Shown here: in pieces, positions 11,629 through 34,884 of the stretch
How the letters are laid out: every line of letters begins with the position of its first letter
Position numbering within the stretch: the stretch's first letter is position 1
Source: Armatimonadota bacterium
Lineage (GTDB): Bacteria; Armatimonadota; Chthonomonadetes; Chthonomonadales; CAJBBX01
Length of the DNA stretch: 35,516 bases
NCBI GenBank assembly: GCA_026392115.1
Contig: JAPLCQ010000070.1
Span: forward strand, 1-35,516
Direction of reading: 5' to 3'
Position numbers and translations under genes: made by a program
Notes under the pieces: generated by a model
What the model saw: the letters and a program-made list of their open reading frames with translations, nothing else
Databases searched by the model: none
Told to the model about the DNA's origin: nothing

Positions 11629-11843
11629 CGGCGACGCCTGCCGAACGCAGGGCGCTGGAGGCGGTGGTGCGTTGCGGTTCCGTGCGCGGCGCCGCCGAAG
11701 GCCTGAGCCTTTCGCCGCACACGGTGGACGAGACCCTGGACCGGCTCAGGCGGCGAACCGGCCTGCACACGACGCCTCAGCTCGCGGCATGGGCGGCGCA
11801 GCAGGGCTGGCTGCGGGTCGAGCCGGTGGAGCATGACGAGTAG
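11625..11843 (+). CDS. Stand-alone LuxR/GerE-type helix-turn-helix protein
   Basis: 72 aa from GTG 11625, whose GTGA overlaps the TGA of the NifU-like gene (GTG 11619 is an alternative). Nearly the whole protein is a GerE/LuxR HTH: 'TPAERRALEAVVRCGSVRGA', the turn SLSPHTVDETLDRLRRRTG and 'TTPQLAAWAAQQGWL'. There is no receiver or sensor domain. The start overlap indicates co-translation with the Fe-S scaffold-like protein, so the two may work together, for example with the metal-binding partner supplying the signal. That function is inference. Confidence 0.72.
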   Translation: MTATPAERRALEAVVRCGSVRGAAEGLSLSPHTVDETLDRLRRRTGLHTTPQLAAWAAQQGWLRVEPVEHDE

Positions 11844-11856
11844 CCGGATTCGGCTA

Positions 11857-11886
11857 TTGACGGCGCAGGGTCTCAGGTCCTACAAT
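11857..11886 (+). promoter_or_regulatory. Possible sigma70 promoter upstream of the first RHS fragment
   Basis: TTGACG (11857-11862), an 18-base spacer and TACAAT (11881-11886) match the sigma70 pattern well. It lies directly after the HTH gene and 16 bases before an in-frame ATG (11902) of the RHS fragment. It may be fortuitous, as the RHS piece downstream is truncated. Confidence 0.4.
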
Positions 11887-11901
11887 GCTAACAACAGGCA
11901 G

Positions 11902-12354
11902 ATGACCGGGGACAGAAGCAGGAGCTACGCGTTGAACCGGCTGACAGGTGTGAACTACGGCGACGGCCTCACGCAGAGCTACACGTTCGACCCGATGGGG
12001 AATCGGTTGACGATGACCGATGCCCAGCAGCACGTCTCGACCTACAACAACGCCAACATGCTGCTGTCGCTCGACGGCAACCCCTACACCAACGACTTCA
12101 ACGGCAACACCCTCACAGGCGGCGGCCGCGTCAACACATGGGACTCGCAGAACCGCCTGCGCCAGTGCGTCTACGGCGGCACGGTCAGCCAGTTCACGTA
12201 CGGCTCAGACGGCCTGCGCCGCACCTCCAACGTCAACGGCACCATCCGCAAGTACATGCTGGACAACGGCATGATGGTGCGGGAGACCGACGCCAACGGC
12301 GTCTCGCAGGCCACCTACCTGGCCGGCCTTCGCGGGCCTTTGCGGTCGCCCTGA
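11902..12354 (+). pseudogene. RHS/YD-repeat fragment, truncated at both ends
   Basis: The frame reads as RHS repeat protein from about 11884 on: 'YALNRLTGVNYGDGLTQSYT', FDPMGNRL, 'WDSQNRLRQCVYGG', FTYGSDGLRRT. It stops at 12352-12354 exactly where a palindrome (12325-12369) begins. There is no signal peptide, N-terminal RHS shell or core domain. Its last part corresponds to the segment just before the core in the RHS tip downstream but differs in sequence, so the two are pieces of different RHS genes. It is open from 11833, and ATG 11902 is the best start if it is translated at all. Confidence 0.65.
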
Positions 12355-12369
12355 GCAACGCGAAGGGCC
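12325..12369. repeat. Palindromic repeat interrupting RHS fragment
   Basis: GGCCTTCGCG (12325-12334) pairs with CGCGAAGGGCC (12359-12369) with one bulge. The RHS reading frame breaks inside it, so insertion of this element probably truncated that gene. Confidence 0.5.
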
Positions 12370-12404
12370 CCGACGCCGGCGCCGCCCTTGCCGTCGCCTC
12401 GGCA

Positions 12405-12507
12405 GTCCGTGGACGTCCGTGTCCGTCCGTGTGTGTCCGTGGCGAAGTCCGGCTCCCACCGGACACGGACCCACACGGACCCGCACGGACGCACACGGAC
12501 CCACCGG
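12405..12507. repeat. GTCCGTG tandem array in inverted orientation (long hairpin)
   Basis: The left arm (12405-12442) is built from GTCCGTG-type units. The right arm (12457-12507) carries the complementary CACGGAC units at 10-13-base steps. The two can fold into one long stem with a short loop. This and its surroundings fill most of 12355-12732, a stretch in which I see no gene. Confidence 0.6.
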
Positions 12508-12583
12508 AGCGTCCGAAGCAGCACTAACAACAAGGGCCGCCCGGCCCCTCCCCTTGGCAGTGGCTGGACCGGGCGGCCAACCC

Positions 12584-12623
12584 CTGAAGGGGTACGCCGT
12601 TATTGTACCGGCTACGCCTTCAG
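12584..12623. repeat. Short imperfect palindrome
   Basis: CTGAAGGGGTACGCCG and CCGGCTACGCCTTCAG flank the eight bases TTATTGTA and pair with a few mismatches. It resembles a REP-type element. Confidence 0.45.
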
Positions 12624-12732
12624 GCCGACCGCCCTGAAGGAGGGAATAAACGAGCCGTTCCGTTCGCAGACTTCAGCGCTTCGCACGATGGCCGGCCGGG
12701 CCGCTCTCCTGCCTTTGCGGCGAGGAAACGGG

Positions 12733-13773
12733 ATGCCAACTATAGACCGAACCAGAGGTTGGCCTCGGGGCCCGGCGACTGAAGTCGCGAGCAACGAACG
12801 GCACGAAGCGCCCCTGCGGGCACTCCCGGCCGCCCACGGCGCCGCGGCTGTCGCCGAGTCGCCGAAGGGCGACTTCCCGCCGTTCGTTGCTGCGGTTTCA
12901 ACCGCCGCGCTTCAGGCTCACGCCTCTTCTTTCAACGCCAACGGCGAGCAGACCGGCCGCACACTGGGCGGCACCGCCTACTCGCTGAGCTACGACTACG
13001 ACGGGCAACTCACGCAGATCACCCAGGGGCAGACCACGACCGACTTCGCCTACGACGCGCTTGGCCGACGCTTCAGCCGCACGGCGGGCGGGTCCACCAC
13101 CGAGTTCCTGTACGGCGCGGGCGGCATGGCGCTGGAGAAGCAGGGCGGCAGCTACACCCAGGCCTACACGCAGGCCAACGGTTTGCTCCGCAGAGGCTCC
13201 GAGTACCCCCTGTTCGACGGGCACGGCTCGGAGCGAACGGTCACCAACTCCAGCCAGACCGTAACCGGCTCGGTGAACTACGAAGCCTTCGGGCAGGTTG
13301 TCGGCACCACCGGCAGCGGCGCCAACCCCTACATGTACGCGGGCGATTGGGGCTACCGCAACGACGGCGACGCGGGCCTCATGCACGTGGGCGCCCGATA
13401 CTACGACGCGCAGGTGGGACGGTTCATCACCCGCGACACGGTGCTGAGCGAGCACCGCTACCTGTACTGCGAGCATGAGCCGGTGGGGGCGGTGGACCCG
13501 TCGGGTGATTCGCCACTAGCTATTGCCGTTGCAGTGGCAGGTGGCGTCAGCTACTGGTTCGGCAACGCCGCTGATGACCAAGGGTGGGAGTTTGGCACCA
13601 ACATCGGCATGGTGTTTGGCGATATCGGTGTGATTGGTGCAGGCGCTATTGCGGTAGTCGCTAGTCCGGCTATTCTGCCGGTGGTCGTTGGACTCATAGC
13701 AGTAGGCGGCGGCTCGTACTGGCTTTCCAAGCACTTGCGTAGGTTCTGGTATGGCCGAGAGAAGATACTGTGA
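12733..13773 (+). CDS. Orphan RHS C-terminal tip 1 (core plus hydrophobic CT domain)
   Basis: 346 aa from ATG 12733, which has GAGG seven bases upstream, although the frame is open from 12388. The first 66 residues come from palindromic DNA and are not RHS. RHS homology starts at about 12931 (FNANGEQTGRTLGG). It includes YD repeats and the RHS-associated core (YMYAGDWGYRNDGDAG, GARYYDAQVGRFITRD, ending VDPSG at 13506). The variable C-terminus (13507-13770, 88 aa) is rich in Gly, Ala and Val, with two or three hydrophobic stretches and a basic end (LRRFWYGREKIL), consistent with a membrane-active toxin; no known toxin motif is seen. The missing N-terminal shell means it cannot be a full RHS machine; it may be silent or a donor for recombination. 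A candidate immunity gene follows at 13871. Confidence 0.6.
   Translation: MPTIDRTRGWPRGPATEVASNERHEAPLRALPAAHGAAAVAESPKGDFPPFVAAVSTAALQAHASSFNANGEQTGRTLGGTAYSLSYDYDGQLTQITQGQTTTDFAYDALGRRFSRTAGGSTTEFLYGAGGMALEKQGGSYTQAYTQANGLLRRGSEYPLFDGHGSERTVTNSSQTVTGSVNYEAFGQVVGTTGSGANPYMYAGDWGYRNDGDAGLMHVGARYYDAQVGRFITRDTVLSEHRYLYCEHEPVGAVDPSGDSPLAIAVAVAGGVSYWFGNAADDQGWEFGTNIGMVFGDIGVIGAGAIAVVASPAILPVVVGLIAVGGGSYWLSKHLRRFWYGREKIL
12774..12906. repeat. Nested palindromic repeat inside the RHS reading frame
   Basis: The outer arms are 12774-12802 and 12879-12906. Both carry AGCAACGAACGGC (in inverse orientation) next to a smaller palindrome of the type GCGACTGAAGTCGC or GCGGTTTCAACCGC. The interior holds a perfect hairpin, AGTCGCC (12857-12863) with GGCGACT (12868-12874). 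The element lies in frame, so the RHS tip at 12733-13773 reads through it. Confidence 0.6.
13072..13506 (+). repeat. RHS core repeat, copy A (435 bp)
   Basis: This block matches 14441-14875 (copy B) end to end with equal length and only scattered substitutions. Positions 13222-13391 match 16838-17007 (copy C). It encodes the segment from FSRTAGG to VDPSG. Confidence 0.85.
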
Positions 13774-13870
13774 CCGTGGCTCGGATCACCCGCGATGCCG
13801 GGCCACAGGGCCCTGAGAGAGCCGTTGCTCCGTCCGTGCGTGGCCGCAACTCTGACTTGAGGCGGCCCGC

Positions 13871-14206
13871 ATGAACGAAACCGTAGTTGGCCTGATGGGA
13901 TGCGCGTTGGTCGGACTCTCGGGACTGCAGCTTACTCTCGCCCGTCATCGCCTACGTGGCGGCCTCCGCTTCGTCGTGGCCGAGCTTTCGCTGCCGCTGT
14001 TTTTCATGACGGTCGGGATCGAGTGGATTCATGACACAGGCTTGCTCAGATTGCCCGGACCCTTACGGCTCATCATTGGATGCCTTGTCGGCGTGTCTTG
14101 GCTGGCGCTGGTCGTCCTCGGCTTCCGCTACGGCAGCTTTTGCCGGTGGTCAGCCAGGGGCCGAGAGGTGGTTGCCGCCCGCCGTGGCCGGAATCACGGC
14201 AGGTGA
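13871..14206 (+). CDS. Small membrane protein, candidate immunity protein for RHS tip 1
   Basis: 111 aa, with GAGG eight bases before the ATG. It has three hydrophobic segments (about residues 5-22, 33-50 and 63-86) and a basic C-terminus (RGREVVAARRGRNHGR). No family is recognised. Its position right after an RHS tip with a hydrophobic toxin-like end is where immunity genes lie in RHS/CDI loci, and a membrane immunity protein would suit a membrane-acting toxin. The base composition around it is visibly less GC-rich than the flanking glycosidase genes, as expected for laterally exchanged tips. Function is inferred from context only. Confidence 0.5.
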   Translation: MNETVVGLMGCALVGLSGLQLTLARHRLRGGLRFVVAELSLPLFFMTVGIEWIHDTGLLRLPGPLRLIIGCLVGVSWLALVVLGFRYGSFCRWSARGREVVAARRGRNHGR

Positions 14207-14398
14207 CCGTACCAGCACCAGGCATCACCCTGGTCCATGAGCTGTTGCAGTCGACTCGTCCACCCTTCACACGAACATCAAGTGAAAGAGATCCAGCGGT
14301 GCGGGCGGCGCGCAGGACACCGCGATGAACGGCCGCCTGGCTCGCCCCGCACTGGGCAGGAAACGAGCCGGGCGGCCACAAGTAGAACAAGGCAGCGA

Positions 14399-15214
14399 AT
14401 GATCAGTTCGATGCGCCGACCACGCAGGGCACATCACTGGTTCAGCCGCACGGCGGGCGGCACGACCACCGAGTTCGTCTACGGCGCGGGCGGCATGGCG
14501 CTGGAGAAGCAGGGCGGCAGCTACACCCAGGCCTACACGCAGGCCAACGGCCTGCTCCGGAGGAGTTCCGAGTACCCGCTGTTCGACGGCCACGGCTCCG
14601 AGCGCACCGTCACCAACTCCAGCCAGACCGTCACCGGCTCGGTGAACTACGAAGCCTTCGGGCAGGCCGTCGGCACCACCGGCAGCAGCGCCAACCCCTA
14701 CATGTACGCGGGCGACTGGGGCTACCGCAACGACGGCGACGCCGGCCTCATGCACGTGGGCGCCCGATACTACGACGCGCAGGTGGGACGGTTTATCACC
14801 CGCGACACGGTGCTGAGCGAGCACCCGTACCTCTACTGCGAGCATGAGCCGGTGGGATTCGTGGACCCGAGTGGGCACTTTGCAGTCCTCCTGCTTGCGG
14901 CAATTGTCATCGTCGGAGCAGCTCTGATTGGGCGGTGCGGGCCCGCAGACCCAGACCCGAGCCCGGCACCGCCCGTCGTGCCGACGGAACCGAGATGGGG
15001 TATCGGCCCAGATTGGGTCGACTCCCCGTTCAACCCGAGGCTGCCCACCTACGAGCCGCCGCGTGGCTTCAATCGAACGTGGCCGGTTGAGCCGTGGCAG
15101 GGCTCAACGACGCCAGAGACCTACAAGGACCCCACCCTGCCGTTCACGGCTCCAAGCAGTGAGATCTCAAACGAGTACAAGTGGTACGGAGGTTCGACCA
15201 ATGGGATTCACTAG
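14399..15214 (+). CDS. Orphan RHS C-terminal tip 2 (core plus TM and Pro-rich CT domain)
   Basis: About 271 aa from ATG 14399; ATG 14237 is also in frame, and neither has a good ribosome site. RHS homology begins abruptly at 14441 (FSRTAGG) and follows copy A without gaps to VDPSG at 14875. The variable C-terminus (14876-15211, 112 aa) differs completely from tip 1. It has one transmembrane segment (HFAVLLLAAIVIVGAALIG), then a Pro/Trp-rich region (DPSPAPPVVPTEPRWG and similar), and ends YKWYGGSTNGIH. No catalytic toxin motif is recognised. The last 14 bases overlap the next gene, and that gene's ribosome binding site lies inside this coding sequence. Confidence 0.58.
   Translation: MISSMRRPRRAHHWFSRTAGGTTTEFVYGAGGMALEKQGGSYTQAYTQANGLLRRSSEYPLFDGHGSERTVTNSSQTVTGSVNYEAFGQAVGTTGSSANPYMYAGDWGYRNDGDAGLMHVGARYYDAQVGRFITRDTVLSEHPYLYCEHEPVGFVDPSGHFAVLLLAAIVIVGAALIGRCGPADPDPSPAPPVVPTEPRWGIGPDWVDSPFNPRLPTYEPPRGFNRTWPVEPWQGSTTPETYKDPTLPFTAPSSEISNEYKWYGGSTNGIH
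14441..14875 (+). repeat. RHS core repeat, copy B (435 bp)
   Basis: Co-linear and of identical length to 13072-13506. Upstream of 14441 the two copies share nothing, which marks a sharp recombination or insertion boundary. Confidence 0.85.
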
Positions 15215-16535
15215 CATTCCCGAGCCCGGGCGAGGTCCAGGGTCGACGGGCTGGGTCCTGTCTCCGCGACCACGCCTGCGCCCGCTGCAGCAGGCGCCCC
15301 GGGGCCGGCGCAACGTCCGGTTCGCCCGGGCGTGTTGCACGGCACTAACAGCAGCTCTGCTGGTATGGTCCGTCGCCTGCGCAGGCCAGGCGGCGGATAC
15401 CGTAACGGCGAACTGGCGGGCCGAACTGGCAAGCTGCTTCGTGCGCGGCGTTTGCGTGGATCGGGATCGCGCCGAGCAGCTACTGATGAGCCTGGACCGC
15501 CTTGCGGCCTCCAGCGCCCTCAGCGGCCGGCCCAATGCGGTGGCTGAACTGTGCCGTGCGCGGGTTGACGGTTGGAGGGCATACGGAGATCCTGCGCGCG
15601 CATCGGTTGCACTCGCATCCGCTGCCAACTGGGCAGTCAACGACCCGCGCCGGGTTGCCTTGCGGCACAGCACACCCCAAGGGTGGCTTGAGGAGCGACG
15701 GTGCGCCATTGAGGCCGGTCAGCACCACTGGCGATCGGCAGCCGGCAACTTCGTTCGGTGGCGTGCTCCGTTCTACCGTGATGCTGTGGCGCCCGCGTGT
15801 CTGGTTCCCCTGGCCTGGGCGGCCCTATGGATGTTCGGTCGGCGGCGACGGAGCTCAAAGCCTTCCCCGCTGGCCTGGCTCTGCGCCGGCCTCTGCCTGG
15901 CGCCACTCTTCCTATCGCTCTTCGGGGACACCGCCATGCTCGCCGCGGGTCTGGCGGCCTCACGCAACCCGTTCGGGGCCCTGCTACGGCCCGATGTGGA
16001 GGAGACTGGCAGGCACCTGGCGGCACTGAGCTTCAGTCTGGCGATGCTCTGGGCGGGCTATCGAGTCACGAAGGTAGGCGGTCTGCCGGCCATCCCGCGT
16101 CCGCCAAGCGGCAGCCCATCCGGGGGCCAGCCGGCCGCAGATGGCGGGCTCCCGCTCCGGCTCGCGGCTGTGGTTGTCGGCGTGGCCATCGTCGCATGGC
16201 CGTGGTTCCGGCCCTCCCTGGCGTTAGGGGTCGTTGGAGGAATCTGGGAGTGGCCTCGTGTGGCACGGCTTGTCGAAGTCGGCCTGCTGTTTCCGATCGC
16301 CAGTCAGTACCTCCTGCAGTACTCCGTGTTACGGGTGATGCAGCGGTTCGGCGGAATGGCGTTTGCCGTGGTGTTCAAGGCCATGCTGTCAGCAGGATTG
16401 GCCAGAGACAACGCAAATACAGCCACACATCTGCTGGCAGGCCTGGTCTACGCAGCGCAGTTCATCCGGTTCCGCTCGCTATCGGTACCGATTGCGACGC
16501 AGGCCGTGGTGACGCTGCTCTCGCAGTCCCGGTGA
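15201..16535 (+). CDS. Polytopic membrane protein overlapping RHS tip 2, candidate immunity protein
   Basis: 444 aa from ATG 15201, fixed by a strong GGAGG at 15188-15192 eight bases upstream. The first hydrophobic stretch (CCTALTAALLVWSVACAG) is followed by a soluble, probably extracytoplasmic domain of about 140 residues containing CFVRGVCVDRDRAEQ. Then come about six or seven membrane segments, from PACLVPLAWAALWMF to the C-terminus. The last part (LLFPIASQYLLQYSVLRVMQ, then HLLAGLVYAAQF) faintly recalls CPBP-type membrane proteases, but the paired-glutamate motif is absent. The 14-base overlap with the RHS tip is typical of coupled toxin/immunity or toxin/partner genes. The function is inferred from position. 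Confidence 0.5.
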   Translation: MGFTSIPEPGRGPGSTGWVLSPRPRLRPLQQAPRGRRNVRFARACCTALTAALLVWSVACAGQAADTVTANWRAELASCFVRGVCVDRDRAEQLLMSLDRLAASSALSGRPNAVAELCRARVDGWRAYGDPARASVALASAANWAVNDPRRVALRHSTPQGWLEERRCAIEAGQHHWRSAAGNFVRWRAPFYRDAVAPACLVPLAWAALWMFGRRRRSSKPSPLAWLCAGLCLAPLFLSLFGDTAMLAAGLAASRNPFGALLRPDVEETGRHLAALSFSLAMLWAGYRVTKVGGLPAIPRPPSGSPSGGQPAADGGLPLRLAAVVVGVAIVAWPWFRPSLALGVVGGIWEWPRVARLVEVGLLFPIASQYLLQYSVLRVMQRFGGMAFAVVFKAMLSAGLARDNANTATHLLAGLVYAAQFIRFRSLSVPIATQAVVTLLSQSR

Positions 16536-16629
16536 CCTACCCATGGCGGCGGCGACGGTGGAGATGCGTCGGCCGGGGACAATCGATGCAGCGCGTGTCA
16601 CGGCACGTGCAAACCATGGAGACGACCGT

Positions 16630-16812
16630 ATGAACAATGCGATGGTCGGCAGAGCGCCGCGGGTAGGTCTCAGGCTTATCCGGGTTGGCGCGATCCTCGG
16701 TATGGTTGGATCGCTGTGGAGCCTGCTCGCCGATCCGCAGCGGCCACTGCTTCCCCTGCTTGGAATCCTGTGGTTTGGCGCCTCTTGGGCATATGCGGCG
16801 AAGGTACAGTGA
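16630..16812 (+). CDS. Small two-TM membrane protein
   Basis: 60 aa from ATG 16630, chosen for the GGAGA at 16618-16622 seven bases upstream (ATG 16543 is in frame but poorly placed). It has two hydrophobic segments (about residues 17-32 and 43-57) separated by a short loop with DPQRP. No family is recognised. It sits after RHS tip 2 and its overlapping partner, and immediately before the truncated third RHS core copy, so it may be a second immunity gene or the remnant of another cassette. Confidence 0.45.
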   Translation: MNNAMVGRAPRVGLRLIRVGAILGMVGSLWSLLADPQRPLLPLLGILWFGASWAYAAKVQ

Positions 16813-16837
16813 CGGTGTGCTCAGTGTACCGCTGCGC

Positions 16838-17007
16838 CACGGCTCCGAGCGAACGGTCACCAACTCCAGCCAGACCGTCACCGGCTCGGTTAACTACGAG
16901 GCCTTCGGGCAGGTTGTCGGCACCACCGGCAGCAGCGCCAACCCGTACATGTACGCCGGGGATTGGGGCTACCGCAACGACGGCGACGCGGGGCTGCTGC
17001 ACGTGGG
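16838..17007 (+). pseudogene. Truncated RHS core, copy C
   Basis: These 170 bases match 13222-13391 of copy A without indels and encode HGSERTVTNSSQTVTG through DAGLLHVG. Homology ends at CACGTGGG, just before the ARYYDAQ part of the core. It is replaced by sequence that reads as a toxin-antitoxin remnant on the other strand. There is no variable tip and no start, so it is non-functional. Confidence 0.75.
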
Positions 17008-17116
17008 AAACGGTCACATCGTCCGCGATCTGGCGATCATTTACCGAGCGCTGAACAATGATCGCGTCGTGTTGCGCTTTGCGAATCAGCAGTCGCGCCT
17101 GGTCGGTCCACGGCAT
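17008..17116 (-). pseudogene. HEPN-domain protein, 5' remnant
   Basis: The minus-strand ATG at 17116 begins MPWTDQARLLIRKAQHDA, then IIVQRSVNDRQIADDV. This is a good match to the start of HEPN-domain proteins ('W...A..DL..A..L......D.I.FH.QQA.EK'). The HEPN continuation is lost exactly at the junction with RHS copy C (17007), so only about 36 codons survive. HEPN proteins are usually the RNase toxin partner of an upstream MNT nucleotidyltransferase, and a matching remnant lies just upstream on this strand. Confidence 0.5.
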
Positions 17117-17312
17117 AGAGCACCTTCCCTTCGCGCAGGGCATCGTAGAGGCAGGAGCCGGGGAAGTCGGCCCACGAAGTGGTCAAGGCTTTTTCGTCGG
17201 TCACAAGCACGTCCACCGCCATGCGCAGCGGGCTCAGTGCGGCGCCCTCCACCTGGGCCCGGCGGCTCGCGCTACACAGCCTATGGTACTCGCCCGGCCC
17301 GCGCGCCCGCCC
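17037..17312 (-). pseudogene. MNT-type nucleotidyltransferase, C-terminal remnant
   Basis: Read on the minus strand, the frame gives EYHRLCSASRRAQVEG, then MAVDVLVTDEKALTTSW, then YDALREGKVLYAVDR. This follows the C-terminal half of minimal nucleotidyltransferases ('P.DVLV......PG....EALREG.VLY'). The catalytic GSxxxG...DxD part is missing; the frame is cut at the stop of the pectate-lyase-3 gene (17314). It overlaps the HEPN remnant in the order and orientation usual for MNT-HEPN pairs. The overlap is longer than in intact pairs, which suggests decay. Confidence 0.5.
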
Positions 17313-17313
17313 C

Positions 17314-18579
17314 TCAGGGCTTCTCCACCAGGTTGCCCGTGATGGTCTTCTGCGCTTTGGGTCCGCTCTGGTCGCGGATCGGCACGGCCGACGTCAGGAT
17401 GTTGTTGGTCAGCGTGAAGAGGGTGACGCCCTCGTCGATCTGCACCGCCGGCTGGCCGGGCACGCTCTTGAAGTGGCTGTCGTGGATGTTCGCCCGGATG
17501 GCGCCCTTCATCAGGCGAACAGCCGGCGAGCCCATGGTCACCTGGCAGTCGGCGATGCTGAGGCGGTTCCGCTCGTGGGGGTTCTTCACGCGGTATTCGA
17601 AGCCGCGGATCGGCTGGTCGAAGGGCCGCACCTGCACGCCGGTGATCACCGCGTTGTAGAAGAGGTGATCGGCGTCCACACGCACGCCCACGCCGCCCTT
17701 GCGCACGAGGATGTTCGTGCTCTCCAGCACGAAGCCGGACGTGCCCTCGAAGATGAAGCCGTTATCGACATCCTCGATCCAGCACTGGTCGATGTGCAGG
17801 CCCAGCGAGTGCGCGGGCTGCTTCGTGCCGTCGGTGGTGTCCTTCGTGGGCAGCTGGTGGAAGAAGGTCCTGGCCCCGATGACGAAGCACTTGCTCATGA
17901 TGAGCCCGTCCACGTCGCCCAGCTCGAAGCCCACGCGGTTGCGCGTGTAGTAGGCCGTGGCGTCGATGGGGTCGCCGCCCACGAACCAGTGGACGTTCTC
18001 CACGCGGACCACGTCGCGGATGCCCGAGAGGTGCATGCCCACGTTGTGGATATGCCCGGTCAGGTTGCGGAAGAGCGACTGGCCGGTCTGGATGCCCGGC
18101 ACCGTGGAGACGCCGTCCCACGCGCAATCGAAGGTGACATCCTCGACGGCGGGGTTGATGCCTCCCAGCAAGATGGCGGGCGGGTACTTCACGGGCTGCA
18201 CGTTCTTGCGGTTGTTGGGGTAGGAGAGGCAGACGCCCTTCAGCGCGGAGGCGTGGTGGAGCCGCACCGCCGCGAAGCCCGGCTGCATGATAAGGATTTG
18301 GGTGGCCGCGTTCTCCCACCGGGCGCCCTCGCCCAGCAGCGTGGCCCCATCGCGCACCAGCAGCGTGGCGCTGATGCGGAACTTGCCCGCCGGCAGGTGT
18401 ACCACGCCGGGGGCGCCCTGCACCGCATCCAGCGCCTTCTGGATGGCGGCCGTGTCATCGGCGACGCCGTCGCCCACGGTCCCGAAGTCGCGCGCATTGA
18501 CGCTCTTCGGCAAGGCGGCCTGCCCCATGGCGGCGCAGGCCGCCGTCAGAGCCAGGCAGAACATGAGAAGGGATTGCAT
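17314..18579 (-). CDS. Secreted pectate-lyase-3 (beta-helix) protein
   Basis: 421 aa with a clear signal peptide (MQSLLMFCLALTAACAAMG). GGAGG, six bases before the ATG on the minus strand, fixes the start. A pectate-lyase-3 domain opens with 'NARDFGTVGDGVADDTAAIQ', then VVHLPAGKFRISATL and 'LLVRDGATLLGEGARW'. The remaining approximately 300 residues show the short alternating strands of a right-handed beta-helix ('RDVVRVENVHWFVGGDPID', 'LHIDQCWIEDVDNGFIFEG'). Likely a secreted polysaccharide hydrolase or lyase; no catalytic residues are assigned. It is related in domain type to the protein at 293-3544 but lacks LamG and has one module. It lies downstream of the GH43 gene on the same strand, separated by a 21-bp tandem repeat. 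Confidence 0.82.
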   Translation of the reverse strand: MQSLLMFCLALTAACAAMGQAALPKSVNARDFGTVGDGVADDTAAIQKALDAVQGAPGVVHLPAGKFRISATLLVRDGATLLGEGARWENAATQILIMQPGFAAVRLHHASALKGVCLSYPNNRKNVQPVKYPPAILLGGINPAVEDVTFDCAWDGVSTVPGIQTGQSLFRNLTGHIHNVGMHLSGIRDVVRVENVHWFVGGDPIDATAYYTRNRVGFELGDVDGLIMSKCFVIGARTFFHQLPTKDTTDGTKQPAHSLGLHIDQCWIEDVDNGFIFEGTSGFVLESTNILVRKGGVGVRVDADHLFYNAVITGVQVRPFDQPIRGFEYRVKNPHERNRLSIADCQVTMGSPAVRLMKGAIRANIHDSHFKSVPGQPAVQIDEGVTLFTLTNNILTSAVPIRDQSGPKAQKTITGNLVEKP

Positions 18580-18637
18580 GGAGGACCTCCCGCGGCCGCG
18601 TTGGGGCCGGCCAAAGCATACCGGACGGGGAAGCGCG

Positions 18638-18735
18638 AAGTCGAAAGGGGCAAGTCTAGAGTCGAAAGGGGCAAGTCTGAAGTCGAAAGCGGTGAGTCGA
18701 AAGTCGAAAGGGGCGAGTCGAAAGTCGAAAGGGAC
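18638..18735. repeat. 21-bp tandem repeat, four and two-thirds units
   Basis: Four consecutive 21-base units (starting 18638, 18659, 18680 and 18701) and a partial fifth share the core GTCGAAAG. The unit consensus is AAGTCGAAAGGGGC followed by RAGTCKR. It fills most of the 168 bases between the GH43 stop and the pectate-lyase-3 gene start. The same unit occurs at 4259-4300. As 21 is a multiple of three, insertions of it preserve reading frame. It is too short and lacks the spacers to be a CRISPR. Confidence 0.8.
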
Positions 18736-18747
18736 GGCGGCGCGGCG

Positions 18748-20364
18748 TCACTTCGCATTTCGCGCCACGGTGAAGTTCCGGAAGGTTGCCGCGTAGGGCC
18801 GCTTGGTTCCGGGCGCAACGGCTCCGAAACCGATCCTCGGCAGGGCGAGGCGCGCCTCGCGCGAAGCGCCGACCGGCGTCCATCGGCCTCCCGCGCCGAC
18901 GACGAAGCTCCAGAGATCGCCGCGGCGAACCAGCCTCAGCCCCACCTTCGAGCCGAGGCTGTTCGGCGTGATCAGCTCCTCGTAGACACCGTTCAACTCT
19001 ATCGCCGTGCTGAACTTCGGTCCGTCTGCATGCACCATCCCCAGACGCACGTAGTTGCCGGCGTCTTGCCATGCGATGATGAAGCACTGCTCGTAGTTCC
19101 CCTGCAGCGCGGCCTCTACCTCGATGCCGACCTCGAAGTCGCCCGCCGCCGGCCCCTGCAAGAAGAGGTTGCGGTAGTCGCAGCGCTGCTTCCACATATC
19201 TCCGTCGAGCGCGGTGACCACGACCCTGCCGGGCTCCTTGCGCCAGTGCTCCGCGCTTTCGTCGACGATCGTCCAGAGGGACCGATCAAGGGCATCGCCG
19301 CCGAAGGCGTCGCTCCGAGGCTCGCGACGCGCAGGCGCGCCCGACGGCGCCGGCTGGGGCGCGACCGTGAGCGGCTCGATGCGCAGGTCCGCCTGCCCGC
19401 CCGGCGTCGTCGTGAGGCGGGCTCGGCTCAAGGCCAGTTGCCGCGCATTGCCGTCGGGATGCAGATGCACGTGCATGTAGGCCCATGTCTCTTTGCCGTC
19501 CGGCGACGCGATGAGGCCGGCGCATCCCGGCCCGGGCAGTCCCGGCGCCTGGCGGATCACCGGCCCTTCGGTCCGTTTGGACCACGGTCCCATCGGGGCA
19601 GGGGCCGTCGCGAAGCCCATGGCGTAGGCGGGATTGCGGAAGTCGTTGATGGAGAACATCATGCAGTAGGTCGAGCCGTGCTTCCATACGTGGGCGCCTT
19701 CGTTGACGGGCTCCACCTCCCAGGGCTGGTTGGGCTCAAGCAGGAGTTTCGGCGCCTCCGCGAGGCTCAGGCGGTCGGCCGTCAGCCTGGCTCCCCAGAT
19801 CGTGTTGCGCCCGTTCCACGCATCGGTGAAGTAGAGGATCGCCGCGCCGCCGGCCTCCTCGAACACAAAGGCGTCAATGGCGTCTCCCCGTCCGGTCCAC
19901 TCGAACATCGGCGCCTTGACGTCGGTGAACGGGCCGAGCGGAGAAGCGCTCCGGGCGACGCATATGCGGCCGACGGCCTTGCCATCCGCCTTGCGGAACG
20001 CGCCGTAGTGCATCAGATAGGCATCGCCGAAACGGTGCACGTCCGGTCCCCAGAACCAGTGCGTGCCCCATCCGTTGGATGTCTTGCGGAAGGCCCAACC
20101 GTGGCATTGCCAGCGGACCAGATCCTGCGATGACCAGACGGGCATGCCCTGGTCGGCATCCTCGGGCATGGATGCCGTGGCATACAGGTAGTAGGTTCCG
20201 CCGGCCCGGATCATGCAGGGATCGGCGAGTTTCACATCGAGCGGGTTCGTAAAGAGCGGGCCGGGGACCGCTTGGCCTTGTCCCCGCGCGCGCATGGCCG
20301 ATGCTCCGACCGACGCCGCGCCGGCGGCCGCCAGCAAGCTTCGACGAGTGAACCGCGAGGTCAT
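18748..20364 (-). CDS. Tat-exported GH43-like glycosidase with C-terminal LamG-like domain
   Basis: 538 aa. The N-terminus FTRRSLLAAAGAASVGASA is a twin-arginine-type signal. Residues about 37-340 form the five-bladed propeller of GH43: the catalytic base is probably Asp48 (NPLDVKLADPCM), the pKa-modulating Asp is Asp164 in DAIDAFVF, and the general acid is Glu222 in VEPVNEGAHVWKHG. The C-terminal approximately 180 residues (from RSDAFGGDALDRSLW) look like a concanavalin-A-type domain that often caps GH43 enzymes. Substrates in this family include arabinan, xylan and galactan. It is upstream of the pectate-lyase-3 gene on the same strand and probably works with it on a plant or algal glycan. 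Confidence 0.8.
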   Translation of the reverse strand: MTSRFTRRSLLAAAGAASVGASAMRARGQGQAVPGPLFTNPLDVKLADPCMIRAGGTYYLYATASMPEDADQGMPVWSSQDLVRWQCHGWAFRKTSNGWGTHWFWGPDVHRFGDAYLMHYGAFRKADGKAVGRICVARSASPLGPFTDVKAPMFEWTGRGDAIDAFVFEEAGGAAILYFTDAWNGRNTIWGARLTADRLSLAEAPKLLLEPNQPWEVEPVNEGAHVWKHGSTYCMMFSINDFRNPAYAMGFATAPAPMGPWSKRTEGPVIRQAPGLPGPGCAGLIASPDGKETWAYMHVHLHPDGNARQLALSRARLTTTPGGQADLRIEPLTVAPQPAPSGAPARREPRSDAFGGDALDRSLWTIVDESAEHWRKEPGRVVVTALDGDMWKQRCDYRNLFLQGPAAGDFEVGIEVEAALQGNYEQCFIIAWQDAGNYVRLGMVHADGPKFSTAIELNGVYEELITPNSLGSKVGLRLVRRGDLWSFVVGAGGRWTPVGASREARLALPRIGFGAVAPGTKRPYAATFRNFTVARNAK

Positions 20365-25983: not shown

Positions 25984-27615
25984 ATGAGAGAGGGATTGAG
26001 GGTCGCGGCGCTCACCGCCGCGATGCTGCTCTGGTCGGCGATGCCTGCGGCCGCGCAGGACCACACGCTGGCGCAGGCCATTTCGGACCAGGCGCAACGG
26101 ACCACGCTGGCGTTCAGCGGCCTGGGCATGATCACCGGGAACCTGGAGGCGCAGTCGTTCTTCCCGCCCGGCAAGGTGGCGGACTACACAGGCTTCCAGT
26201 ACCTCCGCGACAACGATCCGGACAACATGGGCCACAACACCAGCTTCCTGAGCCGGGTGGCCGACAACGTGCTCTACATCCTCACCGACGCGCAGTTGGC
26301 GGCGCTCAAGGCCGTGGCCACCGGCCAGGTGGACCTGATCAACGCGTACGGATACAAGCGCTACCCGCTGATGAAGGCGTTCCGCAGGCTGGTGGACGGG
26401 ACCGGGCCCGCCGGGTCGCCGGGATTGAGCCTCGCCGCCGTGAAGTCCACGTCCCGGGACCTCTACATCATCGATGGGCAGATCAGCTTCGACCGTGCGG
26501 TCCTCTACGCCGAGATCTACCGGAGCATGACGGCGGCGCAGGTCGCCTACCTCGACGCCATGGCGCGCGAGGGCTGGGGATCGTGGCCCGACATCACAGG
26601 CGACCAGGTCCGAGACAGGCTCCGCGGCCTCGCGCACGACCAGTCGGTGGCGGTGATGACCTACGCGGGCGACCTGTTCAGCTGGTACGCCGGCTCCGTG
26701 CAGGCCGACGTCTACTTCTGCCCCGAGCGCCACGGAACGTACTTCGGCTCGTTCTACATGAAGGACGCGCCCGCCATCGGGCACGAGGGCTACAGCATCT
26801 CGCAGTCGCTCACGGCCGACGCGGGCAGCGCCCTATGCGACAGCCGCCTCGGCTACGTCACGGAGGCGCAGGCGGCCCTTTTCACCCAACTGGTGGACGC
26901 CCAGCGCAACAACCTCTACGCAGGCGCCGTCAACATGGTGCAGGCCCGGACCGACATCGCCGTCGCGCTGCGAAGCCTCGTCACCCCAATTCCGCCCACC
27001 GCAGCGTACCTGGCGCAGGTGCGCGCCTATGTGCTGGCCAAATCGGCGGTCTATGGCGAGCTCGACGGCGAAAACGAGGTCCGGTACGCCACCACCATGG
27101 CCCAGCTCCGACGCTCGCTGACGGACGCCCAGAAGGCCAAGCTCGCCGCGCTCCGGGCGCAGATTCTGTGCGGCACGTACGCCGACGGGACGCCGTTCAA
27201 CTTTACGGTCTGCACGACGCCGTTCCTCTACTCCGCCGTCATCACGGACGTGTCGCTCCTTGCGCCGTACATAGCCAACACGGACTACCTGTTCGCGGCG
27301 CCGTCCGTCCAGGCCAAGCTGGCGGTATCCGTACAGCCCGTGGGAACGCGCGTCGGCGCCGTCATCAACCCGCCCGTGCGGATCGCGGTCCTCGACGCCA
27401 CAGGGAACGTGGTCACGACCGCCACCACCGTGGTCAGCCTGAACCTGGGCATCAACAGGACGGGCGCCAAGCTCCGCGGCGTGACTTCCGTCGCCGCGGT
27501 GGCCGGTATCGCGACGTTCCCGGGAATCAGCATCGACAAGCCCGGCGCCTACACGCTGCGCGCTACCGCAACCGGACTGCAAACGGTCGATAGTGCGCCC
27601 TTCCAGGTGAAGTGA
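25984..27615 (+). CDS. Exported LTxxQ-module protein, paralogue 1 (C-terminal Ig-like domain)
   Basis: 543 aa; the signal peptide ends AAAQD (about residue 25). Residues 26-430 form a module shared with the gene at 27762. Landmarks are QAISDQAQRTTLAFSGLGMI, FFPPGKVADYTGFQYLRD, LFSWYAGSVQ then ADVYFCPERHGTYFGSFYMK (232-260), and LTxxQ-type motifs at about 100 (LTDAQ), 182 (MTAAQ), 292 (VTEAQ) and 379 (LTDAQ), each beginning a helix. LTxxQ is a hallmark of the Spy/CpxP/CnrX-like periplasmic stress and metal-sensing proteins, but those are much smaller and I do not claim homology. The C-terminal approximately 105 residues (VQAKLAVSVQPVGTRVGAVI) look like an invasin-type Ig domain. I know no named function. 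It is divergent from the two-component genes and preceded by operator site 1. Confidence 0.75.
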   Translation: MREGLRVAALTAAMLLWSAMPAAAQDHTLAQAISDQAQRTTLAFSGLGMITGNLEAQSFFPPGKVADYTGFQYLRDNDPDNMGHNTSFLSRVADNVLYILTDAQLAALKAVATGQVDLINAYGYKRYPLMKAFRRLVDGTGPAGSPGLSLAAVKSTSRDLYIIDGQISFDRAVLYAEIYRSMTAAQVAYLDAMAREGWGSWPDITGDQVRDRLRGLAHDQSVAVMTYAGDLFSWYAGSVQADVYFCPERHGTYFGSFYMKDAPAIGHEGYSISQSLTADAGSALCDSRLGYVTEAQAALFTQLVDAQRNNLYAGAVNMVQARTDIAVALRSLVTPIPPTAAYLAQVRAYVLAKSAVYGELDGENEVRYATTMAQLRRSLTDAQKAKLAALRAQILCGTYADGTPFNFTVCTTPFLYSAVITDVSLLAPYIANTDYLFAAPSVQAKLAVSVQPVGTRVGAVINPPVRIAVLDATGNVVTTATTVVSLNLGINRTGAKLRGVTSVAAVAGIATFPGISIDKPGAYTLRATATGLQTVDSAPFQVK

Positions 27616-27761: not shown

Positions 27762-29930
27762 ATGAGATCGAGATGGATCATCAGACGTTGCGCCGGCTGG
27801 AGTGCGCTGGCGGCCTGCGCCCTGACGGCGGGGGTGATAGGGGCCTGCGCCCAGGACGGCGACACGCAGGACCGCCCCGAAGCCGGGGCGTCAGGCGCCG
27901 CTCGCGGAGGCGCCAACGCGCAGCAGGGCCGGACCGACGATAGGCGGCCACCGGCGCAGCAGCAGGCGGTAGTCGTGGCCAACAGCGACTACGTCTACAT
28001 ACTGGTCGGCAACGTGCTCTACCAGTATTCCGCCAAGGACCTGAAGCTCGTGAACAAGGCCAACCTCCCGGCCCAAGGCGCGGGGGGGCGGGGCAACGGG
28101 CCCGGCAGCCGGCAGCAGCAGGGCCAGGGCGGGCCCAACGAGCAGGGCGGGCCCGGCGGACCGGGCGGACCGGGCGATGACGGTCAGGGCGGCCCGCGGG
28201 GCCAGGGCCAGGGCGGCCCGCAGGCATACTCGCTGGAGCAGGCCATCTCGGACAACGCCCAGCTCCACACGATCGCCTTCAGCGGGCTGGCTTTCATCAC
28301 GGGCGACTACGGCGCCTGCACGTTCCTGCCGCCCGGCAAGGTCTGCGACTACTTCGGGTTCCAGTACATGCGCGACATCGATGCCGCGCAGGCCGGGCAC
28401 AACCCCAAGTTCCTCGACCGGGTGGTGGCCAACGTCCTGCATACCATGACGCCCGCACAGAAGCAGATGCTCGAGGCCCTGGCTCGCCAGGAGGCCGTGC
28501 AGATGAACAAGCTGGCGCTGATGCGCCTGCCGCTCATCAAGGCCTTCTGCCGCAACCTGGAGGGTGAGATTCCATCGGGTAGCTCCGGGCTCAACAAGGC
28601 CGCGGTCGTGCGCGCGGTCGGTGACATCTTCGCATTCGACGCTGAGATCAGCTACGAGCGGTCGCGGGTCTTCGGTCGGATCGCCGGCTCCCTGACGGCC
28701 GATCAGAAGGCGTACCTAGGCAAGATGAAGTTCGGCGACTTCAACACCTGGCCCGACCTGGACGTCTCCGGCTACAAGCTGCCGCGCGGCACCGAGAAGC
28801 CGGTGAACGTGGCCTACATGAGCTGCGCCAGCGAGTTCTTCAGCTGGTACGCCGGATCGGTCAAAGCGGACGTCTACTTCTGCCCGGAGCGCCACGGCAC
28901 CTACTTCGGCGGCTTCTACATGAAGGATATGCCGGCGATGGGCAAGCGCGACTACGACATCAGCACGTCGGTGACGGGCGACAGCGGCCAGGGCTTCCTT
29001 GCCGCGCTCTCCCAGGAGCAGCGCCGGCCGATCGTCGCCATCCCCGACCTGCAGCGCAAGGACATGAACGAGGTGGTCACCGTCCGCCAGGCCATCGCCC
29101 AGGAGCTCCGGAAGTTCCTCGCCGGCGGGCAGGCGAGCAAGGACAAAGTGGTGGCGCTCGGACGCCGCTACGGCGAACTGGACGGCGCCATGTCCTACCT
29201 CTACGCGGCGGCATTCGCCACGGCCGGCAAGACGCTCACCGCCGAGCAGCGGGCCGAACTGGTGCGGCTTCGCAATCTGGACGGCTATACCAGCGCGCCG
29301 GCCTACATCTACTCCGATCCGGTGCGGGCCGCGGTGCCGATCCCGTCCACGGATCACTTCTTCTTCGCTCCGGCCAAGAGCGCGGGGTCGCCTTCGGGCG
29401 GCTCCGCCGGGCCGGCCCGGAGCGCGCCGAAGCAGCAGGCCGGCTTCGTCCTCCGGAGCCCCGCCATCGGCGCGGACGGCGTGCTCCCGGTCGAGTTCAC
29501 CGGCGACGGCGAAAGCGCCAGCCCTCCGCTGGAGTGGTCCGGCGCACCGGCCGCGACGAAGTGCTACGCCCTGACGATGCACCACGTCGATCCCGAGGGC
29601 AACACCAAGTGGTACTGGACCCTCTACAATATCCCGGCCACCGTTCGGAGCCTCACCAAGGGCAGCGCCGGGGTCGGCATCGCGGGCAACAACAGTGTCG
29701 ACCGCAAGACCGCCTACGCCCCGCCCCACTCCAAGGGCCCGGGCGCCAAGACCTACATCCTGACGCTCTACGCGCTCTCCGAGCCGCTCCGTATGTCGAT
29801 GCCCGCCGCCGACGTGTCCCGGCAGGCGCTGCTGGATGCCATGCGCGGCAAAGTCCTGGCCTCGGCCGGCTTGAGCACGAACTACACGCGGGGCGTCGAT
29901 ACCGAGGAGGCCGAACCCGCGCAGCCGTAA
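27762..29930 (+). CDS. LTxxQ-module lipoprotein, paralogue 2, fused to PEBP/YbhB domain
   Basis: 722 aa; GGAGGAG lies just before the ATG. The N-terminus has a signal with a lipobox-like IGAC (Cys29), so it is probably a lipoprotein. A short strand-rich stretch (VVVANSDYVYILVGNVLYQY) and a Gly/Gln/Pro-rich linker (about 104-154) follow. The shared module spans about 155-537, with LTxxQ-type motifs at about 229, 311, 416 and 492 and the signature FFSWYAGSVK then ADVYFCPERHGTYFGGFYMK. The C-terminal 150 residues (about 562-709) are a PEBP/YbhB-type domain: 'SPAIGADGVLPVEFTGDG', SPPLEWSGAP, then YNIPA. Spacing of the four motifs (82, 105, 76) parallels that in paralogue 1 (82, 110, 87). It is 146 bases downstream of paralogue 1 but has its own copy of the operator. 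Confidence 0.78.
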   Translation: MRSRWIIRRCAGWSALAACALTAGVIGACAQDGDTQDRPEAGASGAARGGANAQQGRTDDRRPPAQQQAVVVANSDYVYILVGNVLYQYSAKDLKLVNKANLPAQGAGGRGNGPGSRQQQGQGGPNEQGGPGGPGGPGDDGQGGPRGQGQGGPQAYSLEQAISDNAQLHTIAFSGLAFITGDYGACTFLPPGKVCDYFGFQYMRDIDAAQAGHNPKFLDRVVANVLHTMTPAQKQMLEALARQEAVQMNKLALMRLPLIKAFCRNLEGEIPSGSSGLNKAAVVRAVGDIFAFDAEISYERSRVFGRIAGSLTADQKAYLGKMKFGDFNTWPDLDVSGYKLPRGTEKPVNVAYMSCASEFFSWYAGSVKADVYFCPERHGTYFGGFYMKDMPAMGKRDYDISTSVTGDSGQGFLAALSQEQRRPIVAIPDLQRKDMNEVVTVRQAIAQELRKFLAGGQASKDKVVALGRRYGELDGAMSYLYAAAFATAGKTLTAEQRAELVRLRNLDGYTSAPAYIYSDPVRAAVPIPSTDHFFFAPAKSAGSPSGGSAGPARSAPKQQAGFVLRSPAIGADGVLPVEFTGDGESASPPLEWSGAPAATKCYALTMHHVDPEGNTKWYWTLYNIPATVRSLTKGSAGVGIAGNNSVDRKTAYAPPHSKGPGAKTYILTLYALSEPLRMSMPAADVSRQALLDAMRGKVLASAGLSTNYTRGVDTEEAEPAQP

Positions 29931-34688: not shown

Positions 34689-34792
34689 ATGACATGATGA
34701 TCGACGGTGCCGTGTAAGCGTCAAACCATCCCCACGTTCCCTTCGCCGTCTCGCATCCGGATAATGCCTCCATCACTTGCATGGAGGTTGAC

Positions 34793-34884
34793 ATGGCGAG
34801 CAGGGCTCTGGTGGAGGCTGCGTGGCGGGAGCGGCTGGAGCGATTCTCCGAAGCGTGGTCCAGGCCCTGGCGGACCCGCGGTGA
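34793..34884 (+). pseudogene. tnpA: IS66 tnpA with internal deletion
   Basis: GGAGG five bases upstream and ATG 34793 begin MASRALVEAAWRERLERFSE, the normal start of IS66 TnpA. After only about 20 codons the sequence jumps into another frame, which gives the normal-looking C-terminus VVQALADPR with the TGA at 34882-34884. The middle of the approximately 100-residue protein, with its HTH, is gone, and the two ends are out of frame. The TGATG overlap with tnpB is intact. Confidence 0.7.

What the first reader, a model, noticed from the sequence alone, without database searches (positions are those of the whole stretch)
11902..17007. Array of orphan RHS tips with repeated 435-bp core
Core copies A and B are co-linear over exactly 435 bp, then diverge into unrelated C-termini, each followed by membrane-protein genes. 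Copy C is a 170-bp fragment. No RHS N-terminal shell is present. This looks like a store of displaced tips, as known for RHS and CDI loci, that could recombine with a full-length RHS gene elsewhere through the shared core.
Basis: partly seen in the sequence, partly recalled or inferred. Interest (0 to 1): 0.55.

Follow-up and report, generated by a model that had tools for sequence, protein, structure and literature searches.

The report
Stockpile of swappable bacterial toxin tips
A little-studied bacterium carries a row of spare, probably membrane-attacking toxin ends with likely protective genes, cut off from the large carrier protein they belong to; one of these spares is almost identical in a related species although the DNA around it is not, which points to trading of spares, and the kind of arrangement is already known from other bacteria.

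Summary
RHS core copies A (13072-13506) and B (14441-14875) match at 401 of 435 bases, then diverge at the DPSG motif into unrelated tips, each followed by a predicted membrane-protein gene; copy C (16838-17007) is a fragment. Congeners are MAGs titled uncultured Chthonomonas sp. (Armatimonadota). The same core occurs 15 times at 86-100% identity on seven contigs of this genome. Two contigs end inside shell N-termini, and a same-family relative has one frame joining shell, YD repeats and core start, so the finding's own refutation is not met. Best evidence for exchange is a mosaic: tip B plus its membrane gene differ from a congener at 11 of 1700 bases, while the adjoining core differs at 59 of 386 and syntenic flanks at no fewer than 51 per 1700. 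A second pair of congeners shows the same step. This is an orphan rhs-CT/immunity array as in Poole et al. 2011, in a phylum for which my searches found no report. One unusual point: copy A and eight other copies keep the shell's leader fused to the core ('headless' copies). Loading of an orphan tip onto a shell was not seen.

The parts
11840..12338 (+). Fragment of a second, different RHS family (same family as G000:C134 copies and the G001:C22 array), cut at 12338
   Evidence: 50-55% protein identity to C134 copies; 92.7% DNA identity of 11835-12338 to G001:C22
12360..12709 (+). 5' leader of the RHS shell: upstream region, ribosome-binding-like GGAGGG and signal-peptide coding start; the shell's ATG reads ACG here (12650-12652)
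   Evidence: 82-85% DNA identity to the leaders of the shells at C134 and C26; codon checked
12710..12932 (.). Inserted dispersed palindromic repeat between leader and core (also at C147 and G001:C39)
   Evidence: Inverted repeat 12790-12891; many genomic matches; same insert in upstream sequences of C147_1 and G001.C39_1
12933..13071 (+). YD-repeat stretch directly before core A
   Evidence: Homology of other copies starts at 12932-12934
13072..13506 (+). RHS core copy A, ending in DPSG
   Evidence: TIGR03696 above cut-off
13507..13773 (+). Tip A, 88 residues, two predicted hydrophobic segments
13871..14206 (+). Candidate immunity gene A, 111 residues, three predicted membrane segments
   Evidence: Pfam COX14 only below cut-off
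14441..14875 (+). RHS core copy B, ending in DPSG
14876..15214 (+). Tip B, 112 residues, one predicted hydrophobic segment; 111 of 112 residues identical in congener G001
15201..16535 (+). Candidate immunity gene B, about 444 residues, five predicted membrane segments, overlaps the end of tip B; 98.9% identical in G001
16630..16812 (+). Small gene of 60 residues with one hydrophobic segment, same place in G001
   Evidence: 89% identity for the longer frame 16543-16812
16838..17007 (+). RHS core copy C, truncated on both sides; tip lost
   Evidence: G001:C126 has a longer core with a tip at the same place
17008..17309 (.). Unassigned stretch joining the broken core C to the conserved block that starts at 17310
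   Evidence: Block from 17310 is colinear with G001:C175 and G002:C143

Best explanation
This is an array of orphan RHS tip/immunity cassettes. The genome holds several copies of a secreted RHS carrier (signal peptide, about 1000-residue YD-repeat shell, core ending in DPSG, variable tip). Tips with their immunity genes have been displaced from the shell, or copied in from elsewhere, and sit head to tail, each keeping a stub of core as homology. Homologous recombination in the core moves cassettes between loci and between species (identity tracts shown, mechanism inferred) and could load a spare tip onto a shell (inferred). About half of the tips have predicted hydrophobic segments and two thirds of the next genes are predicted membrane proteins, so the commonest toxic action is probably membrane disruption of competitors, blocked by membrane immunity proteins (inferred). 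In the window, copy A is a headless copy with a disabled leader, B is a plain orphan and C has lost its tip, so the array is probably not delivered as it stands.
For: 15 core matches at 86-100% identity on seven contigs. Shell starts on C134 and C26; long copies C155_1, C66_1, C76_1 cut by contig ends; G007 frame joining shell and core start. Mosaic with congener G001: 59 mismatches in 386 core bases, 11 in the next 1700, 43 in the last 432; background 51-157 mismatches and gaps per 1700 over three syntenic blocks; Fisher p 4e-34 against the core and 2e-28 to 5e-20 against the three flanks. Second pair G001.C126_3 / G002.C175_1: 28 in 284 core bases, then 3 in 500, background between these genomes 22-182 per 500. 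Same tip families on long and orphan copies: C76_1 / C155_2 50%, C66_1 / G002.C175_2 39%, G009.C48_2 / G001.C126_3 57%. Core under purifying selection, A-B pN/pS 0.15. Hydrophobic segment in 32 of 59 tips against 8 of 143 control C-termini, and in 40 of 59 next genes against 165 of 992 control picks.
Against: No tip has a recognised toxin domain above a cut-off in the ten tips scanned with Pfam or the five scanned with NCBIfam. No orphan-to-shell transfer at one locus was seen. The test for recombination within the core is weak (PHI, 230 of 5000 permutations reach it). The pairs C115/C88 and C76/C33 may involve misbinned contigs. Several orphans are broken: stops in C147_1, C66_2, C171_2, truncation in C111_3, C66_3, C147_3. 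The hydropathy controls use mechanical frames, not curated genes.
Confidence: 0.72

Rival explanations
1. Decay only: the array is the debris of old RHS genes, with no present role as a store.
For: Copy C is truncated. Of 16 copies in this genome, three are long and two are cut by contig ends on their upstream side; of the other eleven, six have a stop or are truncated. The leader of copy A has lost its ATG and carries an insertion.
Against: Tip B and its membrane gene are intact and 99.4% identical to a congener's while background is about 94-95%; core pN/pS 0.15-0.19; tip frames stay open even where the core has a stop (C147_1, C66_2).
Confidence: 0.13
2. The point of the array is immunity: orphan modules are kept because their immunity genes protect against neighbours, and tips are passengers.
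For: A frame of at least 50 codons follows each of the 59 tips examined, 40 with a predicted membrane segment (mechanical pick); tip and next gene lie in one identity tract. Poole et al. 2011 raise this idea for CDI (passages read).
Against: Tips and a core stub are kept along with the immunity genes; the exchange tract includes the tip and the core end.
Confidence: 0.3
3. Headless RHS genes: copies that keep the shell's leader fused to the core are small genes in their own right that spread through the genome and founded the arrays.
For: Six copies in three genomes share one leader-core junction; in all six an in-frame signal-peptide frame ends at TGA overlapping [A/G]TG of the core frame; three more (window copy A, C147_1, G001.C39_1) share a variant with an inserted repeat. 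In relative G018 the first or only copies at five loci share another conserved leader joined to the core, three of them with an exact TTGACA-N17-TATGAT.
Against: Of the six with the shared junction, one runs off its contig and two of the other five are broken (C66_3, C157_1); C175_1 has an altered core start; window copy A lost the start codon. No expression data. The shared junction may be one old deletion that was then copied.
Confidence: 0.22
4. Assembly or binning artefact: arrays joined from different loci, or contigs of one species binned into another.
For: Fragmented genomes; the six other contigs with this core end within about 0.65 kb of a core copy; the blocks left and right of the array are not adjacent in G001 and G002; two pairs of contigs are 99.9% identical over 2806 and 3124 bases between species.
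Against: The B-to-C stretch (14490-17007) is colinear in another genome's assembly, and identity changes inside both contigs, which misbinning cannot make; the C115/C88 tract also stops inside both contigs.
Confidence: 0.08

Closest known systems
Orphan rhs-CT/rhsI and cdiA-CT/cdiI modules (Poole et al. 2011, PMC3150448; passages read)
   Same: Array of stubs with the boundary motif, variable tips and following immunity genes; stubs of varying length; most lack start signals; near-identical modules shared between strains; orphan tips found on full-length genes in other bacteria
   Different: Phylum Armatimonadota; no T6SS sheath gene found in this genome; tips often hydrophobic, no known toxin domain found; some copies keep the shell's leader; tracts seen between species
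Orphan Rhs of Salmonella Typhimurium LT2 (Koskiniemi et al. 2014, PMC3967940; listing and start of abstract seen only)
   Same: Orphan Rhs toxin
   Different: Here many loci and many tips; no expression or selection data
MafB-CT cassettes of Neisseria (Jamet et al. 2015, PMC4287609, author name recalled; passages read)
   Same: CT cassettes with immunity genes, some silent and some with their own start codon, recombination onto full-length genes
   Different: Unrelated carrier protein; restricted to Neisseria
Immunity gene arrays of Vibrio cholerae T6SS (PMC5361080; listing and start of abstract seen only)
   Same: Displaced modules build up in arrays (from the title)
   Different: There immunity genes are the subject; here tips and core stubs remain too

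Membership tests
RHS proteins | RHS-associated core domain (TIGR03696) | tested here: met
   53.7 and 57.0 bits, cut-off 32.5
RHS proteins | YD/RHS repeats | tested here: met
   For the core family: repeats upstream in long copies and in G007/G008 frames, by reading the frames; in window frame A one stretch, NCBIfam TIGR01643 18.5 bits against 15.8, Pfam PF05593 below its cut-off
RHS proteins | N-terminal shell | tested here: not met
   Absent from the window array itself; present elsewhere in the genome and relatives
Orphan rhs-CT/rhsI module | Core stub ending in the DPxG motif followed by a variable tip | tested here: met
   Copies A and B
Orphan rhs-CT/rhsI module | Immunity gene directly after the tip | tested here: inconclusive
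   A predicted membrane-protein gene follows tips A and B, and gene B lies in the same tract as tip B; immunity function not testable here
Orphan rhs-CT/rhsI module | A full-length rhs gene with the same core exists in the genome or relatives | tested here: met
   Shell starts and long copies on broken contigs; joined frame in G007 up to core residue 41; shell plus orphans in G008; never one assembled gene with a core over 80% identical
Orphan rhs-CT/rhsI module | Tip inhibits growth, next gene neutralises it | not testable with these tools
   Needs the bench
T6SS-delivered Rhs | T6SS in the genome | tested here: not met
   PF05943 (VipB sheath) 0 of 1 genomes, control E. coli positive; only this one T6SS family was sought, and the genome is a draft
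Integron gene cassettes | attC sites and an integrase | not tested
   Not searched for

The most novel reading that the evidence does not exclude
In Armatimonadota, RHS has split into two kinds of genes: large carriers and a self-spreading class of headless RHS genes that keep only the carrier's leader (upstream region, ribosome site, signal peptide), whose short frame ends by overlapping the start of the core-tip frame. These headless genes seed arrays across the genome, and recombination in the core swaps membrane-active tips between loci and between species.
Probability: 0.2. Interest if true: 0.62.

Novelty: new member of a known kind. Interest (0 to 1): 0.42.

Why it matters
It extends orphan RHS tip arrays to Armatimonadota, a phylum for which my searches found no such report, and gives a nucleotide-level view of a tip cassette shared between species with one edge inside the core. 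If the headless copies are real genes, RHS loci can make tips without a carrier, which would change how orphan toxins are thought to be used.

Tried and rejected
Simple tandem duplication was rejected as the whole story: in the 5' half of the core both A and B are nearest to C171_1, and in the 3' half B is nearer to C155_1 and C171_1 than to A. T6SS delivery: no VipB match. Known toxin domains in tips: nothing above a cut-off in ten tips with Pfam and five with NCBIfam. Recombination within the core: PHI reached by 230 of 5000 permutations over 11 copies, one near-duplicate copy (G001.C88_1) left out; weak. In one search I labelled seven copies 'main' by contig position; C88_1 turned out to be headless, and C115_1 (its near-duplicate), C171_1 and G002.C111_1 have unknown upstream parts, so the class split there is not reliable; the three classes gave 0.17-0.19. 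In one search the 'next gene' is simply the longest frame near the tip end; of 93 core copies, 77 are in the seven genomes used, and 59 of those were kept (core end present, tip of 40 residues or more). Literature: searches (15 of 72 papers listed; 12 of 219 listed) gave precedents only. No structure prediction was run: too few relatives per tip for a useful alignment.
Full report
What is there. The window is contig C111 of a 5.72 Mb, 181-contig genome. Its two congeners G001 and G002 match, by contig number and length, MAGs titled uncultured Chthonomonas sp., a genus of Armatimonadota, class Chthonomonadia. Between 12933 and 17007 lie three copies of an RHS core. A and B share 401 of 435 bases and part at the DPSG motif into unrelated tips of 88 and 112 residues; C is a 170-base piece. 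TIGR03696 recognises A and B above its cut-off. After tip A comes a 111-residue gene with three predicted membrane segments; after tip B, overlapping its end, a gene of about 444 residues with five; then a 60-residue gene with one hydrophobic segment, and core C.

Surroundings. Left of copy A are, in order: a gene block that matches G001 up to 11825, where the G001 contig ends; a fragment of another RHS family at 11840-12338; the 5' leader of this RHS family's shell at 12360-12709; and an inserted palindromic repeat to 12932. Right of copy C is an unassigned stretch of 302 bases, then a block conserved in G001 and G002 from 17310. In G001 and G002 that right block joins a different gene, so the array sits at a break of gene order.

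Is there a shell? In this genome the core matches 25 times at E up to 0.001, 15 of them at 86-100% identity on seven contigs. The six other contigs end within about 0.65 kb of a core copy. Three copies (C155_1, C66_1, C76_1) run upstream through YD repeats to the contig end. Shell starts with a signal peptide are at C134:105200-106914 and C26:1-788, both cut by contig ends; the C134 copy is split over two frames (open frames 163 and 321). In G007 (same family) one frame of 1044 residues joins shell start, YD repeats and the first 41 core residues (56% identity) before its contig ends. In G008 a 1080-residue frame with core and tip is followed by an orphan and a fragment. Of 41 genomes searched (own genome and 40 relatives), 37 have a core match. 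No single assembled full-length gene with a core over 80% identical was found.

Evidence of exchange. Window 14490-17007 is colinear with G001:C126 without gaps. Mismatches are 59 in the 386 bases before the end of core B, 11 in the 1700 after it (tip B and the membrane gene), then 43 in the last 432. Three syntenic blocks between the same genomes give 51-157 mismatches and gaps per 1700 bases. Fisher p is 4e-34 for core against cassette and 2e-28, 6e-27 and 5e-20 for the three flanks against cassette; rpoB is 91% identical. G001.C126_3 and G002.C175_1 show the same step: 28 mismatches in 284 core bases, 3 in the next 500, rising again after about 1000 bases; two syntenic stretches of these genomes give 22-182 per 500. 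Two further pairs are 99.9% identical: C115_1/C88_1 over 2806 bases, ending inside both contigs, and C76_1/C33_1 over 3124 bases, the whole of C33. Misbinning may play a part there, so I do not lean on them. Of 75 tips compared, related tips occur on long and on orphan copies (C76_1/C155_2 50%, C66_1/G002.C175_2 39%, G009.C48_2/G001.C126_3 57%).

Selection and toxicity. pN/pS in the core is 0.15 between A and B and 0.17-0.19 over the classes compared. By hydropathy 32 of 59 tips have at least one membrane segment against 8 of 143 control C-termini, and 40 of 59 next genes against 165 of 992 control picks; controls and next genes are mechanical frames. Ten tips scanned with Pfam and five with NCBIfam gave nothing above a cut-off. 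I infer membrane-active tips with membrane immunity proteins as the main type; this is not shown.

Headless copies. Six copies in three genomes (C155_2, C66_3, G001.C88_1, G001.C157_1, G002.C81_1, G002.C175_1) share one junction between the shell's signal-peptide start and the core. In each the signal-peptide frame ends at a TGA that overlaps an ATG or GTG opening the core frame. Window copy A, C147_1 and G001.C39_1 have instead an inserted repeat at this place, and copy A has ACG where the shell has ATG. In G018, of another family in the order, the first or only copies at five loci share a different conserved leader fused to the core, three of them with TTGACA-N17-TATGAT exactly (nine G018 loci examined). 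This may be one old deletion copied many times, or small genes in their own right; of the six, one runs off its contig and two of the other five are broken. It is the most unusual point here, but unproven.

Known or new. Poole et al. 2011 (passages read) describe orphan rhs-CT/rhsI modules with the same anatomy, near-identical modules shared by strains, and the proposal that they are a reservoir. PMC4287609 (passages read) describes silent and startable CT cassettes in Neisseria. Searches for Armatimonadetes with Rhs and toxin gave no paper, and for Armatimonadota with polymorphic toxin one paper, on lipocone domains, not opened; the library holds open-licence papers only. So this is a new member of a known kind, in a phylum for which I found no report, with good evidence of exchange between species.

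Noticed in passing
window 11840-12338; G001:C22 (L207): A second RHS family with its own orphan array in G001 (core ending ...GYCGGDPVNAVDPSG); a protein that looks by eye like pentapeptide repeats lies in the same array.
   Followed up: partly
window 12770-12910: Palindromic repeat with many matches over the genome (81 matches to 12360-12932 as a whole), REP-like; also in G001 and G002.
   Followed up: partly
G018 loci L078, L079, L080, L081, L083: First or only RHS copies at five loci lack a shell and share a conserved leader directly joined to the YD/core part; three have TTGACA-N17-TATGAT exactly.
   Followed up: partly
G000:C115 / G001:C88 and G000:C76 / G001:C33: RHS stretches 99.9% identical over 2806 and 3124 bases in two species whose background identity is about 94-95%: very recent transfer or misbinning; the first stops inside both contigs.
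   Followed up: partly
window 18627-18731: Tandem array of a 21-base unit just after the pectate-lyase-like frame 17314-18579 and before frame 18748-20364.
   Followed up: no
window 26047-26828 and 28213-28991: Two neighbouring stretches 73-78% alike in parts, probably duplicated genes.
   Followed up: no
window 34714-34850: 97% identical, inverted, to the start of contig C154 of the same genome.
   Followed up: no
G000:C28 (L032) and G001:C143 (L090): RHS frames of over 1900 residues with a C-terminal part of more than 600 residues after the core instead of a short tip; 92% identical DNA over 4.3 kb.
   Followed up: no
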